NCBI GenBank assembly: GCA_016930435.1
Contig: JAFGGQ010000086.1
Coordinates: 1-21,617, forward strand
Length of the DNA stretch: 21,617 nucleotides
Origin: a bacterium
GTDB lineage: Bacteria > UBP14 > UBA6098 > JAFGQG01
Direction of reading: 5' to 3'
Within the stretch, counting starts at the first letter, position 1. Each line of letters starts with the position of its first letter. Positions 10,254 through 21,359 of the stretch are shown in pieces. The notes below the pieces were generated by a model, which saw nothing but the letters and a program-made list of their open reading frames with translations, was not told where the DNA came from and made no database searches. The position numbers and the translations under genes are program-made.

Positions 10254-11489
10254 CTATCTTAATAGCATGATTTTTTCGGTTAAAGAATGTTGTGAAGATC
10301 CAATGCAAATAAGGTACAAACCCTGGGAAAGCTTTTCGGAAGGGAACCAGCGAATGGTTTCATCATAGCTTTTTCGATCATGAAAGACCTGGGTGCCATT
10401 AAGATTATAAATGGTCACTTCGATATCATCCTTGAGATAGTCTTGATAAGAAAGCAGGCCTGGAATGGTTAAAGCGATATTCAATTCGTCGGTGACCGGA
10501 TTCGGGAAAACGTTCAGCCTGTATTCCTCTAATTCACAGTACTCCTGGATTGCTATTGAGGTAGTATCGATGATCATAATGATGCTTCCGCTGCCGTCTT
10601 CGGTAACGAAGATTCGGTTCAGATCATCGACCAGCACGTCTTCAATACTCAGAAATCCGGTAGCGAAGGTCGAGTGGCTTCCGCTTTCATTTACCTCAGA
10701 TAGCCGGCCGTGGCCGTCGCCCAGATCCTCTTCAGCTACAAAGATGGGAAAATTTTTCCCGGGGCTGAATGCCAGGCCTTCGCAGGCTGTCAATCCCGAA
10801 CAGAAAAGGCTCTGAACCCCCGTATTCGGGTCAATAGTGAGAACGCTGTTCGTAGTGCCGGTACCAGAAGCTTCATTGCAAACATAGATCAAGCCATCAC
10901 CATCAGTAGTGATCCCGGAATAACTCCAGAGAAACAGGGCTGTATGAAAGCGGTCAGGAGAATAACCCGCCTCAACCCTGGTTACATAGGTCTGATAATC
11001 AAATGGACTGGATACGAACTGAACGGTGGATTCGGTAATCAGTAGTTCTCCCAGGGGCGATAATGTGATCCCTTCAGGAGCTGCCCGGTCGGTAGCTACA
11101 ATGCTGAGTGTCCCGGTTGAGTCGTAACAAAGAACCCTTCCGTTCTGAATGTCTTCAACTGCATAGAGATTTCCAAGATTATCGAAGGCAATTCCCTCCG
11201 GTGAAGAAAGGCCTTCCACAAAGGTGATCACGGATCCTTCTTCGGTTATTTTTGATATTCTGCCTGCTGATTCTTCGGAAACATAGAGATCGCCGGAAGG
11301 GGAGAGTGCAAGGGCATCGGGACTGGATAAACCCGTTGCGTAAACAAAAGCCTGATAGGGGGGTGAGAGAATGATCCGGGGTAATGGATCGCCTGGTTCC
11401 ATGGACTCAGCGAAAGTGCAGAATATGCCTGTCTGCAGAATAATCAGAAACAGAATAAATTTAAGATTCTGTATGGTGATTTTGATCAT
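10254..11489 (-). CDS. Secreted NHL/SMP-30-like beta-propeller protein with C-terminal sorting domain
   Basis: The 411-residue protein starts with a signal peptide (hydrophobic 9-26, likely cleavage after CTFA at 27). Residues about 50-310 hold repeated propeller blades of the form LSSPxxxAxxxxGxLYVxE (near 53-71, 94-112, 137-153, 235-253, 280-297), as in NHL, Vgb or gluconolactonase-like propellers. Residues about 324-411 form a type-IX-type sorting domain (YRLNVFPNPVTDELNI, ExxLSQGLYL, ending KIMLLR). The role is probably extracellular ligand binding or a lactonase-like activity; no catalytic set can be assigned. The GGGGAG before the ATG is unusually close. It follows the five-helix membrane protein gene by 8 bp. 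Confidence 0.8.
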   Translation of the reverse strand: MIKITIQNLKFILFLIILQTGIFCTFAESMEPGDPLPRIILSPPYQAFVYATGLSSPDALALSPSGDLYVSEESAGRISKITEEGSVITFVEGLSSPEGIAFDNLGNLYAVEDIQNGRVLCYDSTGTLSIVATDRAAPEGITLSPLGELLITESTVQFVSSPFDYQTYVTRVEAGYSPDRFHTALFLWSYSGITTDGDGLIYVCNEASGTGTTNSVLTIDPNTGVQSLFCSGLTACEGLAFSPGKNFPIFVAEEDLGDGHGRLSEVNESGSHSTFATGFLSIEDVLVDDLNRIFVTEDGSGSIIMIIDTTSIAIQEYCELEEYRLNVFPNPVTDELNIALTIPGLLSYQDYLKDDIEVTIYNLNGTQVFHDRKSYDETIRWFPSEKLSQGLYLICIGSSQHSLTEKIMLLR

Positions 11490-13284: not shown

Positions 13285-13330
13285 ATAAGATAAAGATATT
13301 CAATATCAATCAGTATTTTTTTTATCTTAT
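13285..13330. repeat. Inverted repeat at the 3' end of the C25 peptidase gene
   Basis: ATAAGATAAA (13285-13294) and its exact reverse complement TTTATCTTAT (13321-13330) flank a 26-base spacer that itself contains the palindrome GATATT-C-AATATC (13295-13307). One arm covers the last codons and the stop of the peptidase gene. No T-run follows the hairpin on the minus strand, so it is not a textbook terminator. It could protect the 3' end of the mRNA or separate the peptidase from the OB-fold gene. Confidence 0.5.
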
Positions 13331-16300
13331 AAGCAACATTGAAATCGTGCTAAATCTCGACCCATGGGAAATCCTGCAGAAATATATGCCGCTGGGAGCT
13401 AACTGGCCATCTTCCTGTTTGCCATCCCAGCGCGTTTCATATTCCCCGGGTTCACAAACCCCATCCGCCAGTGTAGTGATCTTGTTTCCTAAAATATCGA
13501 ATAAGCTAATGTTTACCGGTCCCTTTTCCGGTAGGGCATATTTGATAATGGTCTGCGAATTAAAGGGATTGGGAATATTCTGGGAGATTGTAAGTGTACT
13601 CGGAATTTTAGGCTCGGGACTAACAAGCTGAATCCCGGTAGCCTCTGAACCGATTATGTATATGTTGCTTATGTACCAACCCGCTTCAACGTTGACCGAG
13701 GATGACCCGAAATTGAAGAATATCTGGACATTATGGCCTACGTAAGGGCGCAGATCAAATGTACTGAAATGCCAGAAATTTCCATTTCCAACATCTGCGT
13801 ATGATAATTCCCAGGGAATATAACGGTTATATTGAGACATTATAACATCGTAATATTCTTGAGGATAGAGAAAAACCGGGTCGCCTCCATCTACGGATAT
13901 CTTGATATTTCCGCCATCGTGATATCCGTAGGAGTTGGGAGTCTGGAAACGGTACCAGTGCGCGATTTTCAGAAAGGCCCAGGCTGCTTCGGTCAAGTCA
14001 ATTGAAGGAAGGATCAACTTTGACCGTGAGCTGTCCCTGTAAGCAGAAGCTAATTTAGTTGCCCAGACATTGCTTCCGAAGGGGACCCCGCTGGGGCCAT
14101 AAGTGGGTATTCCCCATTCCCAATCATTCCAGGGTCCGCCAGTAGTGATTCCGGAGCTTGATGAACCTACATTTAAAAAATGGAGGCTATTATCGACATA
14201 AGGTCCGGTGAGGTAGCCTGTACGCGGAAAGCGGATCACCTGTCCGTTCGCAGTAAACTCGAAGTAGTAATTGTGTACCCCGTTAGGCATCGAGCTGGAA
14301 AATGTAAAAGCGGAACCGTCAGTATAATCATAGTCGGTAGTGGACAAAGGGTAAGCAGCGCCATCCAGCACGATGTTTTTGGTGGTTGGAGCATATCCGT
14401 TATGGCTTATGTAATTCACCGAGAAATTGAACCCGGTAGTATCGCTGCCTGCAAGTGGATAGACCGTTCCGGCTCCCAGGTACCCGTTATGTTCGGGCCC
14501 TATATAAAAATCGTCGATGTACCATCCTTCGCCGTGCACATAATTATCACTTTTCATCTTAAACCGGACCTGGATTTCGGAGCCGGCGGTTAGCGAACTG
14601 AGATCATAAGCCCGGTAAAGCCATTTCTTGCTCAGTCCGGTAAAACCCTCTACAGTAGTCCATCCGCTACCGCTGTTGATCTGGACAAACCCGGAGTCGA
14701 AACCTGCCTCGGTAGAGTAAAAATGCCAGAATGAAAGTATGGAATTGGCGGGTAGAATTACAGATGAGGAGGTGAGATCCAGTTCTGAGAGGTCGGGGTA
14801 GAGGTGCGTTATTTCATCTCCGCAGTACCAACTGTTGCCGGGTGTATTAGACCGGAATTGAGTGCGTTGCCAACCAGAAGATGTCCAGCCGCCTATGCCT
14901 CCTTCTATATCGTCAGACATGCCGCCTTCTCCAATGAGGATGCTGAATGTATCAGAATCTGTGAAGCCGATAGCAGTTGAAAAATCCAGACTAAAATGGG
15001 ATATGTGAGGAGATGGGCAGGAAGTATTTATTGAAAAGGTATAACTGTGAGATGAAATTGAGGAGGCGGAAGGTATAAGGTTGCCGTAGGATGCTGAGGA
15101 GGTAGTAACTGTAATATATGGATCAGTAATATCGGATAGTATTCCGGTAATGCTACGGGCAGTCTCCCCGCCGTTATTAATTATGGATATATTAAGATCA
15201 CAGATTTCACCCGGCTCCGGAAAACCATCTCCGTCACCGCCGGGTGGAGTGTCCAGCAACTCATAACTCAGAAAATCCAGTACGGGCGCCCTTACCGTTA
15301 CCTGAAAATCAATATTCCAGGTGCTGTCCTCGCTATCGGTGGCCTGAAGCACTAATGGAACCACATGATTATCCGGGCAATCCACGTTAACCCTGAATAT
15401 ATAGGGGGTAAGGGATGCTTTATTGGTTCCGGCAGGGATATTGCCGAAGGAATTCAATCCATCAGTAATTGTGATATAGGGATCCGTTGTGCTTAATATC
15501 CCGGTTACGCTCAAAGCATCAACCGAACCATTATTACGGAGTGTGATCTGCATTTCAATGGTTTCCCCAATATCGATAATGCCGTCGTTGTCTCCCGAGC
15601 TTTCACCTGGTTCATCGTCATTGACGGTACTGGATGAATAAACCAGGTAAGGCTGATTCCCGGATACTATTATGGTGCCAAAATAAGGGATTTTATTATA
15701 GGCGGTTACTGTTATGAATAGAGTGTCCCCCATAGTCGCGTCGCTAATGGCAAGGGATACACTCCCGGAGCTGTTAGTATAGCCGGCTTTATGAATGCTG
15801 CCATCATTGGTTATACATACCAGGGCATTTTGCAATGGACTTCCTCCCGACGTCACGGTTGCACTGATATTGGAGGCGCCCGGTAAGGTTATGTCGGGGT
15901 GTGTAACATTCATTGCCATTGGTTGCCGGAACCATAGGGCAACAGAAGGGTCACCCAGGATATTGTACATATCGTAATAATACTCGGCATTGGAAGGATA
16001 GGTAAGGTAAACGCCATACAGCCCTCTCTGAGCCATCCCTCCGATAAGGTAATACTCATCTTCGAATACATCGTCATACATTCTGCGTTCCAGCACATCA
16101 TCTTCATCCCAGTAAGAGTTGTTGGATGCCCCAAAGAATGCTAAAGCGCCCCCATTATCCTGTCGGATCCAGGTTTCGCCAAAGCATTCATCCCTTGAGA
16201 ACTTCCCGGTTAGACAGGCATTGCTGATAACGAAGGGGTACATGTTATTGTTGGACGCAGCCTGGACCATGGCCTGGGAAACGCTGGGGCCAGCCCAGGA

Positions 16301-17656
16301 TGTCTCCGAACCGTGGCCCGAGTAGTTCACTATCATCCGTCCATTGTTTACCGCATTCATCACCTGGATGCCGGTTCCCCCGGAGTGAGCCCAGATCGAA
16401 TCACATTGAAAACCCCTGGGGCCGTACCAGGTCTGAATAGCATAGCGATGGGTGGCCTCCGCCAGATCCCAGTACCAGCTATCATCCGAAGCCGGGAAAC
16501 ATGCCTTATCCATCCAGGCAAAACTGCTGTATTCCCTTTTTTCATAAGTTACTATACGCCCGACCATTTCACTTACCTGAGTGGTATTGGTCAAGGATAA
16601 ACGCCCTACCATAAGGTCCGGAAGATAATCGCTGACATCCATCAGGGAGAAGGGCAGATCACTGGCCGATCCGGATTCCTCCCCCGAGAAAGTGGGGATT
16701 TGACCTACATCACCGACTAAAAGAACAAAATCGGGCGGCACCAGCCCGGAATCATACTGGTTCTGGATATAGTTACGAACACCGTTAGCCGTACCCCCTA
16801 ACTCTGCATCGGTCTTGAAATCTACCTTAAAACCCTTACGCATCTTCCAGTGAACCAGATCGGAAAGCTGAGAGGCAAAACCGGATTCATATACTATTAT
16901 CATTCCGATATCCAGAGCAGGCACCCAATCCGGACTGAAATACGCGCCGGGATTTAATAGCAATCCGGAGAACATCTCCTCAAAATAAGCGGAATAATAG
17001 CGCGTTTTCATTTCCCTGGTTAACTGATAATCAGACCCGCTTAAATTAATATTGAAATTCAGGCTTTTAACCACTTTTAAATTATTCTCAGCTGGATTAT
17101 AATCTACCGGGCGAATCTCAATTAGGAGAATGTGATAGCCTCGGGCTACAGCATTATCAATGATCACCACCGGTTCCGCAAACAGATAGGAATGTCCATC
17201 GTAAAATTGCTGGTCAATAATGAAGGGATTTTTCTGGTTCGGCAATTTGATCTGAGGTTGCTGAAGAGGATAAACGGGTTCTTCTATTCCCAGTTCCTGT
17301 CCCGGATACTCGTCATATTGATAATCTGTGATCTGGAGATAGGGGGTTGCCCCAAAGGGAATCTGGACCATTGCCCGGATCACCGGAAGCTGAGGTTTGC
17401 CAATTTCAGATGAATACTGACCGGTTGCAGTGACCAGCTGGGTGAAATTCCCTGCTTCAGTTTCAACAGTGTTTATCTCAAAATCAGTCCCCGAGTATTC
17501 CAGGGTGACTTTAAAATAATCACTATCAAGCAAATTCAAAGCGGGAACTGAACCTAAATCCAAGGCTAATACCGAAAAGAAATTAACCAGGATGATAAAA
17601 ACTGCCAATATCCCTGCAGTTTTAAGTTTTGGTTTTATAGATGAAGCTTTTAACAT
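13322..17656 (-). CDS. Secreted gingipain-like C25 cysteine peptidase, multidomain, with FlgD-like sorting tail
   Basis: A 1444-residue exported protein. The signal peptide is residues 1-31 (hydrophobic 14-31). A C25 propeptide-like region (about 45-248, with QLPVIRAMVQIPFG) precedes the caspase-fold peptidase at about 249-577. The catalytic dyad is visible: His448 in NYSGHGSETSW and Cys481 in ISNACLTG. The domain ends with ILGDPSVALWF, as in gingipains. Then come an Ig-like domain (578-670), two CARDB-like domains (about 676-905) each opening with an acidic DxDGxxxxGE stretch, a jelly-roll adhesion module (about 913-1055, GGIGGWTSSGWQ), a linker domain (1063-1160), a second jelly-roll (1163-1340) and a FlgD-like tail (1352-1444: IPNPFN, WDGKQEDG, SGIYF). 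It probably acts outside the cell or on its surface in protein degradation. Confidence 0.9.
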   Translation of the reverse strand: MLKASSIKPKLKTAGILAVFIILVNFFSVLALDLGSVPALNLLDSDYFKVTLEYSGTDFEINTVETEAGNFTQLVTATGQYSSEIGKPQLPVIRAMVQIPFGATPYLQITDYQYDEYPGQELGIEEPVYPLQQPQIKLPNQKNPFIIDQQFYDGHSYLFAEPVVIIDNAVARGYHILLIEIRPVDYNPAENNLKVVKSLNFNINLSGSDYQLTREMKTRYYSAYFEEMFSGLLLNPGAYFSPDWVPALDIGMIIVYESGFASQLSDLVHWKMRKGFKVDFKTDAELGGTANGVRNYIQNQYDSGLVPPDFVLLVGDVGQIPTFSGEESGSASDLPFSLMDVSDYLPDLMVGRLSLTNTTQVSEMVGRIVTYEKREYSSFAWMDKACFPASDDSWYWDLAEATHRYAIQTWYGPRGFQCDSIWAHSGGTGIQVMNAVNNGRMIVNYSGHGSETSWAGPSVSQAMVQAASNNNMYPFVISNACLTGKFSRDECFGETWIRQDNGGALAFFGASNNSYWDEDDVLERRMYDDVFEDEYYLIGGMAQRGLYGVYLTYPSNAEYYYDMYNILGDPSVALWFRQPMAMNVTHPDITLPGASNISATVTSGGSPLQNALVCITNDGSIHKAGYTNSSGSVSLAISDATMGDTLFITVTAYNKIPYFGTIIVSGNQPYLVYSSSTVNDDEPGESSGDNDGIIDIGETIEMQITLRNNGSVDALSVTGILSTTDPYITITDGLNSFGNIPAGTNKASLTPYIFRVNVDCPDNHVVPLVLQATDSEDSTWNIDFQVTVRAPVLDFLSYELLDTPPGGDGDGFPEPGEICDLNISIINNGGETARSITGILSDITDPYITVTTSSASYGNLIPSASSISSHSYTFSINTSCPSPHISHFSLDFSTAIGFTDSDTFSILIGEGGMSDDIEGGIGGWTSSGWQRTQFRSNTPGNSWYCGDEITHLYPDLSELDLTSSSVILPANSILSFWHFYSTEAGFDSGFVQINSGSGWTTVEGFTGLSKKWLYRAYDLSSLTAGSEIQVRFKMKSDNYVHGEGWYIDDFYIGPEHNGYLGAGTVYPLAGSDTTGFNFSVNYISHNGYAPTTKNIVLDGAAYPLSTTDYDYTDGSAFTFSSSMPNGVHNYYFEFTANGQVIRFPRTGYLTGPYVDNSLHFLNVGSSSSGITTGGPWNDWEWGIPTYGPSGVPFGSNVWATKLASAYRDSSRSKLILPSIDLTEAAWAFLKIAHWYRFQTPNSYGYHDGGNIKISVDGGDPVFLYPQEYYDVIMSQYNRYIPWELSYADVGNGNFWHFSTFDLRPYVGHNVQIFFNFGSSSVNVEAGWYISNIYIIGSEATGIQLVSPEPKIPSTLTISQNIPNPFNSQTIIKYALPEKGPVNISLFDILGNKITTLADGVCEPGEYETRWDGKQEDGQLAPSGIYFCRISHGSRFSTISMLLIR

Positions 17657-18290: not shown

Positions 18291-19370
18291 CTAATCACGA
18301 AGACGTTCAAACAATAAGGAAGCGCTTCCTTGTGCCCGAAAGCTCTTAATGAAATCCAAAGCGGAGTGGTATGCTGATTCTTGAATTTGCTTTACATTAC
18401 TGGAAGGTATATTATCGATTTGCTCCTTAAAAACCTTTGTTGCCTTTTTGATCGGCTGTCCGTTTTCCTGAACCCACTTATTAATGTCTTTCATGAGGTT
18501 CTCGGGCAGGCCTTGATGAGCAATATTTTGCCAGTTGGTACCAACATTCCCTTTTCGAATACCATAATCCGCAAAAGACCCGATCAAATGTAGAGGGGTT
18601 CCGGTTATGCCATGTTGGGCAATAGAGACCCCGTAAGGTTTAATCGCATCATATATCTGTCCGGTACGCTCAAGATCAATGTGAACTTCTTCTTCAGGAT
18701 CATAATTGCCATGTTTGGAGCCATTACTGATGGCCAGCAGATTCATGTTTACTCCATTTTTCTTCAGAGTGGAGATATATTCAAGAGCTTCTTCTACGGT
18801 AGTCAGTTTGCCCTGGCTGCCGGCAATTTCACCAACTTCTACTTCAAGCCCGAGGCCAGCTTTTAGGATAGGGGGCACTAATTTCAAGGTGATTTCAATA
18901 TTATCCGGTAGTTCATTATGAGAAGCGTCAATAGCAAAGGAGGAAAATCCCGCTTCAAGTTGCGCCTGGATCAATTCCTGTGCCTCCCTCAACTGGTTTT
19001 CAGAAGTGTCCTTAACGCTGATATGATCGGCATGTATAAAGAACGGGACGGTGTAATCCATGCTCTCGCCGTATTCAATCAACATCTCCACGAACTGCCT
19101 GGGAGTTTGACCGGTATAACCTCCGGTGATTCCCCCCTCTGATTTTGCCAATTCAAATCCTAAAATAGCGTCCAATTCCTGAGCGGCCTTCATGATTCCT
19201 GGTACTACATGCTTTATCCGAATGTTGCATGCCATGAATATTAACCTGTCCTCTAGAAAACGCGAAAAAATATCAGCGCTGTTAAGCACGCACAATTTAC
19301 TTTTTGAACCCAAAACTTTTCGGACATTCTCCGGTCTTTTCTCAAGGAATGTATCAATCTTTGTGGTCAT
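18291..19370 (-). CDS. fba: Class II fructose-bisphosphate aldolase family protein
   Basis: Zinc-dependent aldolase, most likely splitting fructose-1,6-bisphosphate or a related ketose bisphosphate such as tagatose-1,6-bisphosphate. The 359-residue length fits the type A branch. HADH at 113-116 gives the catalytic Asp115 and zinc ligand His116. The GLEVEVGEIAG stretch (174-184) supplies the acidic zinc/metal region, SKHG gives His220 and AQHG His253, the other expected zinc ligands. SEGGITGGYTGQTP (77-90) is part of the active-site region. An excellent Shine-Dalgarno GGAGG lies five bases before the ATG. It is divergent from the microcompartment shell gene and ahead of the zinc-ribbon gene. 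Sequence alone does not decide between fructose and other substrates. Confidence 0.85.
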   Translation of the reverse strand: MTTKIDTFLEKRPENVRKVLGSKSKLCVLNSADIFSRFLEDRLIFMACNIRIKHVVPGIMKAAQELDAILGFELAKSEGGITGGYTGQTPRQFVEMLIEYGESMDYTVPFFIHADHISVKDTSENQLREAQELIQAQLEAGFSSFAIDASHNELPDNIEITLKLVPPILKAGLGLEVEVGEIAGSQGKLTTVEEALEYISTLKKNGVNMNLLAISNGSKHGNYDPEEEVHIDLERTGQIYDAIKPYGVSIAQHGITGTPLHLIGSFADYGIRKGNVGTNWQNIAHQGLPENLMKDINKWVQENGQPIKKATKVFKEQIDNIPSSNVKQIQESAYHSALDFIKSFRAQGSASLLFERLRD

Positions 19371-19633
19371 TTGTCCTCCGGGTAAATATTAGAAGTTTAT
19401 TTTTATCCTTCCTATTTCTATATTTGGCACTTTAGGTATTATTAGCAATTTACATATTAAAATAGTAAAATAAACGAGTCTTGCAACTTTTTTTTGCAGC
19501 TTAACTAACATTCAGGAACAATCAATACAGATCACTTTTTAATCCAGTATTATGCCTTTAATTTATCTTGACTTTTTTAAAAATCCACATTAATTATGCA
19601 GAAAAGATGGAATTTAGTAAAAAAGGGGCAAAT
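19371..19633. promoter_or_regulatory. Divergent control region between aldolase and shell-protein genes
   Basis: A 263-bp AT-rich gap separating two head-to-head genes and presumably holding both promoters. It contains the aldolase ribosome site, a small hairpin (TGCAA, loop of eight, TTGCA, near 19482-19500) and a TTGACT promoter candidate for the shell gene. I see no clear operator, riboswitch or small gene. Confidence 0.5.
19568..19594 (+). promoter_or_regulatory. Weak promoter candidate for the BMC shell gene
   Basis: TTGACT (19568-19573) is followed after 15 bases by ATTAAT (19589-19594, four of six matches). It would begin transcription about 30 bases before the chosen start codon. The short spacing keeps confidence low. 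The reading frame of the shell gene is open back to this TTG, but this stretch is better explained as promoter than as coding. Confidence 0.3.
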
Positions 19634-20194
19634 ATGATACAAGCTTTGGGTATGATAGAGACTGTCGGTTTTATTGGTTGTGTAGAGGCGGCGGACGCCG
19701 CCGTTAAAGCGGCAAAAGTTGAGCTTATCGACTACGAATATTCCTCGGGAGGCATGGTTATTGTTAAATTTTTAGGGGCAGTTGGAGCGGTAAAGGCTGC
19801 AGTTGAAGCTGGTGCTGCTGCAGCTGATAAGATTGGTGAGTTAGTAGCAGCCCACGTCATTCCTCGGCCAGGGGATGATATTGCGATGGAGATTTTTCCT
19901 CCCAAGAAAAAAATGAAGGTCGATACATCGGAACCGGATGATAATTTTAGGGTTGCGGCCAAACCAAGGATAGCTCCTAAGTCCAAACCAGCTGGAAGAC
20001 CAAAAGTATCAAAATCCGAAAAAGAAAAAGAGCTGTTAAAAAAGGTTAACAGTGAAGGCATGGACAACCTTGAAGCTTATGAACTAAGGTTTCTGGCTCG
20101 TCGTATTGACAGTTTTCCACTCCCTAAATCGGAAATAAGATTGGCGGGGAAAAAGAGACTGTTGAATGCATTTAAAAAGGTTAAATTCAGTTAA
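19634..20194 (+). CDS. BMC-H microcompartment shell protein with basic helical C-terminal tail
   Basis: Hexamer-forming shell protein of the PduA/EutM/CcmK type (Pfam BMC). From the ATG at 19634 (AAGGGGC upstream) it has 186 residues; the BMC domain (1-88) opens with the classic MIQALGMIETVGF, keeps the edge lysine Lys25 (AAVKAA), a pore loop YSSGG (36-40), GAVGAVKAAVEAG (48-60) and the VIPRP end with Arg78. Family members usually stop there. Here about 98 residues follow: a Lys/Pro-rich linker (91-128) with the AT-hook-like core PAGRPK (119-124) and a helical module (about 129-183, NLEAYELRFLARR..PLPKSEIRL..KKRLLNAF) resembling a SAP or Rho-N fold. EutK also joins a BMC domain to a nucleic-acid-binding-like tail. 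No other shell or cargo gene is in the window. Confidence 0.9.
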   Translation: MIQALGMIETVGFIGCVEAADAAVKAAKVELIDYEYSSGGMVIVKFLGAVGAVKAAVEAGAAAADKIGELVAAHVIPRPGDDIAMEIFPPKKKMKVDTSEPDDNFRVAAKPRIAPKSKPAGRPKVSKSEKEKELLKKVNSEGMDNLEAYELRFLARRIDSFPLPKSEIRLAGKKRLLNAFKKVKFS

Positions 20195-20239: not shown

Positions 20240-21061
20240 ATGTTAAGATTGATTAAGATACATATAATTTGCATTTTGCTTACATTTGCCCTCGGAAAAA
20301 GTTTTGCTGAATATGCTTTCGGTTTCAGATTAAAAGCATTGTTTTCTTCAGGTGAACCGGTATATATCGATAATCTTATCTTTGGTTTGGATGGTTATGC
20401 ATCCGATGGTTTAGATCCTGGTATTGATGGACTGATGCCGCCCCCACCGCCAATAGGAGGATTTTACTGGTACTTTGTCCCGGATTCAACCTCGGATGTC
20501 TTCCTGAGGACGGATATACGCAACCTGACCGGAGACGAGTTCTGGTGGCAAATCCAAACCTGGGACACCACTTCAGATTTATATTACACGGGCTGGTGTT
20601 CAGATTCTATTATCGCATATCCATGGGGAGGGGAGTTCCGGATCGGAGCAAGTTATCCACCATCTCTGCCTACTGAGTGGGTGGACATGGCATCGGAATC
20701 ACTATTGGCTTTTTCACCTGGCCAAATAATTACCATTCATCATACCGGAACCGGAGTAGATGACCCGTTACCGCTAAGTGCTTCAGGATTTGCGCTGGGA
20801 GACCCCTATCCCAATCCTTTCAATAGCTCTGTGAACATAATCTACAGGTTTACATCTGGTAACGGGAGATGCCGATTAATTATTACGGACCTCCTGGGTA
20901 ATGTGATTTTCCGTCAATTATTGCAGGCATCTACAGGTTCTAATGTTTTTATTTGGGATGGAAAAAGTTGCAACGGGGACAATGTGCCTTCCGGTATATA
21001 CGTTTTAAATTTTGAACATAAAGGAATCACTGCGTCCAGATCCGTATTATTTTTGAAATAA
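20240..21061 (+). CDS. Small secreted protein with FlgD-like C-terminal sorting domain
   Basis: The 273-residue product has a signal peptide (hydrophobic 6-19, cleavage likely after SFA at 23). Residues about 24-175 form an unrecognised extracellular domain, rich in Gly, Asp, Trp and Tyr, with a run of five prolines near 67-71 and a FWWQIQTWD patch. Residues about 186-273 are a FlgD-like sorting domain: GDPYPNPFNSS, ITDLLGNVI, WDGKSCNGDNVPSGIY, and a final Lys. The mature part probably ends up at the cell surface or outside. No Shine-Dalgarno is visible before the ATG. It lies 45 bp after the BMC gene on the same strand, but the functions look unrelated. The N-terminal domain function is unknown. 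Confidence 0.8.
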   Translation: MLRLIKIHIICILLTFALGKSFAEYAFGFRLKALFSSGEPVYIDNLIFGLDGYASDGLDPGIDGLMPPPPPIGGFYWYFVPDSTSDVFLRTDIRNLTGDEFWWQIQTWDTTSDLYYTGWCSDSIIAYPWGGEFRIGASYPPSLPTEWVDMASESLLAFSPGQIITIHHTGTGVDDPLPLSASGFALGDPYPNPFNSSVNIIYRFTSGNGRCRLIITDLLGNVIFRQLLQASTGSNVFIWDGKSCNGDNVPSGIYVLNFEHKGITASRSVLFLK

Positions 21062-21101: not shown

Positions 21102-21359
21102 ATGTCAAATCTATCGTTACAACCGAATATTGGCAGTACTATTGAAGAGAAATTAGTAGCAGTGGGGATTGATTCTATTGAAAAACTGCGTAAAGATGGT
21201 AGTATTGGGGCATATAATAAGCTCCAGAAATCCGGTTACCGCTGTTCTTTAAATCTGCTATTTGCGCTGGAAGGCGCAATTATGGGGATCAGGTGGCATA
21301 AACTTTCCCGTGAAAGAAAGTTGGAACTACAAAGTATTTTTGAGGATCAATCTCTTTAA
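21102..21359 (+). CDS. Stand-alone TfoX C-terminal domain protein
   Basis: The 85-residue protein matches the TfoX_C domain (the second half of the competence regulator TfoX/Sxy), a helix-hairpin-helix-like fold. The key stretches are PNIGSTIEEKLVAVGI (8-23), where the family has PNIG..L..VGI, LR.DGSIGAYNKL (29-41), SLNLLFALEGAIMG (49-62) and Trp65 with LSRERK. No N-terminal TfoX domain is present and none lies next to it, so it is a single-domain form, common in many bacteria and probably a nucleic-acid- or protein-binding module. A good promoter candidate lies upstream, yet no clear Shine-Dalgarno. Competence function should not be assumed. Confidence 0.85.
   Translation: MSNLSLQPNIGSTIEEKLVAVGIDSIEKLRKDGSIGAYNKLQKSGYRCSLNLLFALEGAIMGIRWHKLSRERKLELQSIFEDQSL

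What the first reader, a model, noticed from the sequence alone, without database searches (positions are those of the whole stretch)
19634..20194. Lone microcompartment shell protein with an AT-hook-like linker and SAP-like tail
The BMC-H domain is complete, yet it carries about 98 extra residues: a basic Lys/Pro linker with the core PAGRPK and a helical module with the spacing of SAP/Rho-N folds. Both parts recall nucleic-acid binders. EutK is a known precedent for a BMC domain fused to a nucleic-acid-binding-like tail, but its tail is a different, winged-helix type. No cargo, pentamer (BMC-P) or trimer (BMC-T) genes are nearby, so the shell may be satellite to a distant locus, or may serve something other than a metabolosome, for example a structure that holds DNA or RNA. 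The nucleic-acid idea is inference.
Basis: partly seen in the sequence, partly recalled or inferred. Interest (0 to 1): 0.75.

Follow-up and report, generated by a model that had tools for sequence, protein, structure and literature searches.

The report
Shell protein with conserved basic helical tail
This gene encodes a wall protein of a bacterial protein organelle whose other parts are scattered over the same genome; it carries a conserved, positively charged folded tail that probably sits outside the organelle and may tether it inside the cell, a variant of a known theme rather than a new kind of structure.

Summary
In detail: 19634-20194 encodes a complete BMC-H domain plus a ~98-residue C-terminal extension. 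Two interpretive points fail. (1) It is not an isolated shell protein: the genome also has a plain BMC-H, a tandem BMC-T and a BMC-P, each on another contig. Across the 17-genome candidate phylum, 8 genomes have dispersed shell genes and 9 have none. In one family an aldehyde dehydrogenase with an encapsulation-peptide-like N-terminus follows the plain BMC-H. This fits the published 'FRAG' organisation, perhaps with SPU-like (deoxyribose) chemistry. (2) The AT-hook-like PAGRPK is absent from all five orthologues. The terminal module, however, is conserved in all six tailed proteins (two families), found in no other protein searched, and predicted as a confident ~55-residue helical domain (pLDDT 90). 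Its sequence is not SAP, Rho-N or EutK_C; a weak fold match to the Rho N-terminus exists. It is consistently basic. Because BMC-H termini lie on the outer face, and the tailed BMC-H proteins PduK and EutK control organelle distribution, the best explanation is an externally displayed basic tether that positions the organelle, possibly on the nucleoid. Nucleic-acid binding remains inference. New variant of a known kind.

The parts
19623..19628 (+). Shine-Dalgarno-like AAGGGG before the ATG
   Evidence: read directly
19634..20194 (+). CDS of the tailed BMC-H shell protein, 186 aa (an in-frame TTG at 19568 is a less likely start)
   Evidence: orthologues start at the equivalent ATG
19643..19870 (+). 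BMC-H domain (PF00936, residues 4-79), specialised type: lacks the PRPH and KAAN motifs described for basal BMC-H
   Evidence: motif definition from PMC8217296
19895..20011 (+). variable, basic, probably disordered linker (residues 88-126)
   Evidence: pLDDT under 50; mean pairwise identity 0.30 with gaps
19988..20005 (+). PAGRPK, AT-hook-like by eye, not conserved
   Evidence: absent from all five orthologues
20015..20179 (+). conserved basic helical module (residues 128-182); invariant K130 K137 G142 L146 R152 L154 A155 R156 R157 F161 P162 K165 I168 R169 A171 G172
   Evidence: AF2 pLDDT 90, pTM 0.75 when folded alone

Best explanation
A specialised, probably minor BMC-H subunit of a metabolosome whose shell genes are dispersed over the genome (FRAG-like layout, perhaps with SPU-like chemistry). 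Its PF00936 domain takes a place in the shell facets. Its C-terminus, which in BMC-H lies on the outward concave face, displays up to six copies per hexamer of a basic helical module on a flexible basic linker. The module tethers the organelle to an anionic cellular scaffold, most likely the nucleoid or RNA, so that organelles are spread and inherited rather than left at a pole: the role shown genetically for EutK and PduK, here with a tail of different sequence. Shown here: domain, conservation, restriction to BMC-H, dispersed shell set, predicted fold, basic charge. From literature: outward termini; positioning by EutK and PduK. Inferred: external display in this protein, tethering, and nucleic acid as the partner.
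For: PF00936 complete. In the phylum's 17 genomes shell genes occur in 8 and are absent in 9; the fuller sets have one plain BMC-H, one tailed BMC-H, one BMC-T and 3-4 BMC-P on separate contigs (two BMC-P genes adjacent in G001). The tailed form is one clade, support 100/99. Module conserved in 6/6 tailed proteins, absent from other proteins of 31 genomes, predicted at pLDDT 90. Core acidic (net -2 to -5), linker plus module basic (+6 to +15) in all six. Literature: concave face and both BMC-H termini are external (PMC6787980); PduK loss leaves Pdu organelles at the poles and its tail is proposed to act from the outer face (PMC9132943); EutK loss leaves Eut organelles polar, and its positively charged tail is proposed to bind nucleotides (PMC12487888). 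Weak fold match to Rho residues 1-46, Z 3.6, 2.5 A over 41 residues.
Against: No sequence homology of the module to any nucleic-acid-binding family. The Rho fold match is in the chance range for small helical models. Two of six modules have a net charge of only +2. A basic tail can also bind acidic proteins or membranes. No positioning partner was identified.
Confidence: 0.45

Rival explanations
1. The module is a protein-protein docking domain: it recruits an enzyme, transporter or regulator to the outer face of the shell (or cargo, if the subunit is inverted).
For: Conserved hydrophobic and Pro/Gly positions as well as basic ones; folded domain on a flexible linker; weak match of one member to DUF6576, a domain of unknown function (E 0.0013), and a DUF6576 protein as top viral fold hit at E 1.1.
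Against: Consistent basicity of linker plus module; no partner gene conserved next to the gene in six genomes.
Confidence: 0.3
2. The extension tunes shell assembly: it limits facet growth or stacks hexamers through the concave faces.
For: C-terminal extensions of CcmK2 and CcmK4 were proposed to affect tiling or stacking (PMC5534457); the tailed core has lost the PRPH/KAAN edge motifs.
Against: A ~55-residue globular basic domain is more than steric control needs; the linker is long and variable.
Confidence: 0.15
3. The tail captures DNA fragments or nucleotides as substrate for an SPU-type, DNA-catabolising compartment.
For: DeoC in one operon with BMC-P and an HD-domain hydrolase in G006; BMC-P beside cytidine deaminase and phosphopentomutase in the window's genome and near cytidine deaminase in G001; AldDH with an EP-like N-terminus beside plain BMC-H.
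Against: Substrates would be sugar phosphates that pass pores, not polymers; that AldDH is not found in the window's genome, and G001 has only a 29% match.
Confidence: 0.08

Closest known systems
EutK (BMC-H with EutK_C tail, PF16365)
   Same: Single BMC-H domain, linker, folded positively charged C-terminal domain, one tailed paralogue beside plain BMC-H paralogues
   Different: EutK's tail is the PF16365 nucleic-acid-binding-type fold (PMC12058022); the module here has no match to it among Pfam hits up to E 10; different BMC type and genome layout
PduK (BMC-H with Cys-rich C-terminal extension)
   Same: Minor tailed BMC-H whose tail is proposed to act on the outer face; needed for organelle distribution (PMC9132943)
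   Different: PduK's extension is mostly disordered with a Cys-rich motif; this one has no Cys and is a helical domain
FRAG BMC types (Sutter et al. 2021, PMC8217296)
   Same: Shell genes at many separate genomic places, mostly away from enzyme genes; three or more BMC-P in relatives; found in candidate phyla
   Different: Not typed here with the published HMM set; cargo links differ between the two families
SPU BMC types
   Same: DeoC in one operon with BMC-P in one genome; AldDH with an EP-like N-terminus beside BMC-H; PduS-like protein near BMC-T in G001
   Different: No compact locus; RpiB not tested; that AldDH not found in the window's genome
SAP and Rho_N domains
   Same: Small helical module with ELR-LAR and GK-rLL spacing; weak VIA-align match to Rho residues 1-46
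   Different: An extra helix between the two conserved segments; no sequence or profile similarity

Membership tests
BMC-H shell proteins (PF00936) | one complete PF00936 domain over the curated cut-off | tested here: met
   positions 1-75 of 75, 87.9 bits against 24.5; solved relatives at E 1e-24 and better
FRAG-type BMC | shell genes dispersed over many genomic locations away from enzymes | tested here: met
   four shell genes on four contigs in the window's genome; the same in relatives
FRAG-type BMC | BMC-P triplet | tested here: inconclusive
   3-4 BMC-P in six relatives; only one, split over two frames near a contig end, in the window's genome
FRAG-type BMC | type-specific shell-protein HMM composition (BMC Caller) | not testable with these tools
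   HMM set not available here
SPU-type BMC | DeoC aldolase linked to shell genes | tested here: inconclusive
   linked in G006 only; every genome with detected shell genes has a DeoC, but so do most without
SPU-type BMC | RpiB in the locus | not tested
SPU-type BMC | BMC-associated aldehyde dehydrogenase | tested here: inconclusive
   beside plain BMC-H in five genomes of f3; not found in the window's genome
EutK_C (PF16365) | profile match of the tail | tested here: not met
   not listed for any of six tails at E up to 10
SAP (PF02037) | profile match of the tail | tested here: not met
   not listed by Pfam; hhalign against five SAP sequences probability 0.8%, one column aligned
Rho_N (PF07498) | profile match of the tail | tested here: not met
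   PF07498 search finds one place in the window's genome, on contig 90, not the tail; hhalign probability 0.8%
Rho_N (PF07498) | fold | tested here: inconclusive
   VIA-align Z 3.6, rmsd 2.5, 41 residues to 6duq chain A residues 1-46; in the chance range
AT-hook | conserved GRP core flanked by basic residues | tested here: not met
   GRP present only in the window protein, absent from five orthologues
PduK/EutK-like positioning function | loss causes polar mislocalisation of organelles | not testable with these tools
   needs genetics; the known cases are PMC9132943 and PMC12487888

The most novel reading that the evidence does not exclude
A previously undescribed small nucleic-acid-binding domain, so far seen only on this shell protein of one candidate phylum, anchors a metabolosome directly to the nucleoid without a ParA/McdA-type system; with EutK this would be a second, independently evolved solution, suggesting that direct DNA tethering of organelles is a recurrent principle.
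Probability: 0.25. Interest if true: 0.7.

Novelty: new variant of a known kind. Interest (0 to 1): 0.45.

Why it matters
How bacterial protein organelles are spread and inherited is open outside the McdAB carboxysome system. EutK and PduK implicate tailed BMC-H subunits, but the mechanism is unknown. A third tailed BMC-H with a different folded basic tail, conserved over genus and family lines, is an independent case: it would let one ask whether an outward, basic, nucleic-acid-binding tail is what matters rather than a specific domain. The ~60-residue module is small enough to test in E. coli directly.

Tried and rejected
AT-hook reading: rejected, not conserved. SAP and Rho_N by profile-profile comparison: no signal. 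Tail shared with cargo or other proteins: none in 31 genomes; a pattern scan of ~85,000 species genomes gave only four loci, all with the tail, on contigs whose lengths equal those of the G001, G008, G010 and G015 contigs. PduL phosphotransacylase as a metabolosome marker: absent in all 17 genomes, so no support from it. Exog_C similarity (E 2.8e-5 for one member, 0.014 for another, none for the rest) and DUF6576 (one member): treated as weak leads, since the window's own tail matches neither. PDB Foldseek: no match better than E 2.3; top VIA-align row is an RNA-editing complex subunit, Z 4.9. PHROGs: nothing. My first DeoC N-terminus alignment read minus-strand loci on the wrong strand and was redone.

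Full report
The feature. The ORF at 19634-20194 (186 aa) is real: it has a Shine-Dalgarno-like AAGGGG 5 bases before the ATG and a full PF00936 match at residues 4-79. Closest solved relatives are canonical shell hexamer proteins such as HO-5815, EutM and PduA. The remaining ~98 residues consist of a low-confidence linker (88-126) and a helical module (128-182).

Not an isolated shell protein. The window is the whole of contig 123 of a 180-contig assembly (2.85 Mb, 90% complete). The same genome holds a plain BMC-H (contig 77), a tandem BMC-T (contig 17) and a BMC-P (contig 142). In the 17 genomes of this candidate phylum, shell genes are present in 8 and absent from 9. The three 92-98% complete carriers (G006, G008, G010) each have one plain BMC-H, one tailed BMC-H, one BMC-T and 3-4 BMC-P genes, each on its own contig. 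The tailed form is missing only from carriers that are 83% and 59% complete (G014, G016). This is the organisation Sutter et al. 2021 describe as FRAG: shell genes at as many as six locations, with a BMC-P triplet (PMC8217296).

Cargo hints. In five genomes of family f3 an aldehyde dehydrogenase (PRK15398 family) directly follows the plain BMC-H (in G014 only its N-terminal part, at a contig end), with an N-terminal helix of encapsulation-peptide type as judged by eye. In G006 a BMC-P, an HD-domain hydrolase and a DeoC aldolase form one operon. In the window's genome BMC-P lies beside cytidine deaminase and phosphopentomutase, and in G001 near cytidine deaminase (the phosphopentomutase name is from its sequence and the PF01676 match). 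G001 also has a PduS-like protein two genes before BMC-T. These point to deoxyribose-phosphate catabolism as in SPU compartments, but this is not proven: that AldDH is not found in the window's genome and PduL is absent throughout.

The tailed BMC-H is a distinct, specialised paralogue. On a tree of 24 BMC-H domains the six tailed proteins form one clade (100/99) and the six plain ones another (100/99). The plain ones keep the PRPH motif described for basal, facet-building BMC-H; the tailed ones do not (motif).

The tail. Mean pairwise identity is 0.69 for the core, 0.30 for the linker and 0.52 for the module. The AT-hook-like PAGRPK is present only in the window protein. The module has 16 invariant residues in six sequences, several of them basic (R152, R156, R157, K165, R169), and folds alone at pLDDT 90, pTM 0.75 into four helices. 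It occurs in no other protein of 31 genomes. A pattern scan of ~85,000 species genomes found only four loci, all with the tail. It has no profile similarity to SAP, Rho_N or EutK_C. The core is acidic and the extension basic in all six.

How it probably works. BMC-H termini lie on the concave face, which faces the cytosol (PMC6787980). Two tailed BMC-H proteins with unrelated tails, PduK and EutK, are needed to keep organelles away from the poles (PMC9132943; PMC12487888), and for EutK nucleotide binding by a positively charged tail has been proposed. The simplest explanation is that this protein does the same with a different module: an outward-facing basic tether, most likely to the nucleoid. 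External display in this particular protein, tethering and the nature of the partner are inferred, not shown.

Novelty. Tailed BMC-H proteins and a proposed nucleic-acid-binding tail (EutK) are known; extensions up to 200 residues have been noted (PMC8217296). New are the module itself, its restriction to one candidate phylum so far, and its presence in a dispersed system. I rate it a new variant of a known kind.

Noticed in passing
L039:100-347 (window genome contig 142): The only BMC-P found in the window's genome is read in two frames (apparent frameshift) near a contig end: either a broken pentamer gene or an assembly error.
   Followed up: partly
L122:5614-6456 and DeoC genes in L157-L164: DeoC in shell-positive genomes carries an N-terminal amphipathic-looking helix followed, in 7 of 8, by a four-cysteine cluster (such as CxDGxxCxxCxxC); the six DeoC read from shell-negative genomes lack the cysteines. 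Possibly an encapsulation peptide plus metal or Fe-S site.
   Followed up: partly
18291-19370: A class II fructose-bisphosphate-aldolase-like gene lies divergent to the shell gene; it passes the Pfam cut-off (PF01116) but scores far below the curated NCBIfam aldolase cut-offs. A link to the organelle was not tested.
   Followed up: no
13322-17656, 10254-11489, 20240-21061: Three proteins with type IX secretion C-terminal sorting-domain matches, one resembling the PorU/gingipain peptidase region, in a bacterium of an unnamed phylum.
   Followed up: no
20240-21061 and L041:1414-2232: The protein with a T9SS sorting-domain match downstream of the tailed BMC-H has a similar protein downstream of the orthologue in G001, the only context seen conserved for this gene within the family.
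   Followed up: no
21102-21359: Stand-alone TfoX C-terminal-domain protein (PF04994, E 4e-22) near the contig end.
   Followed up: no
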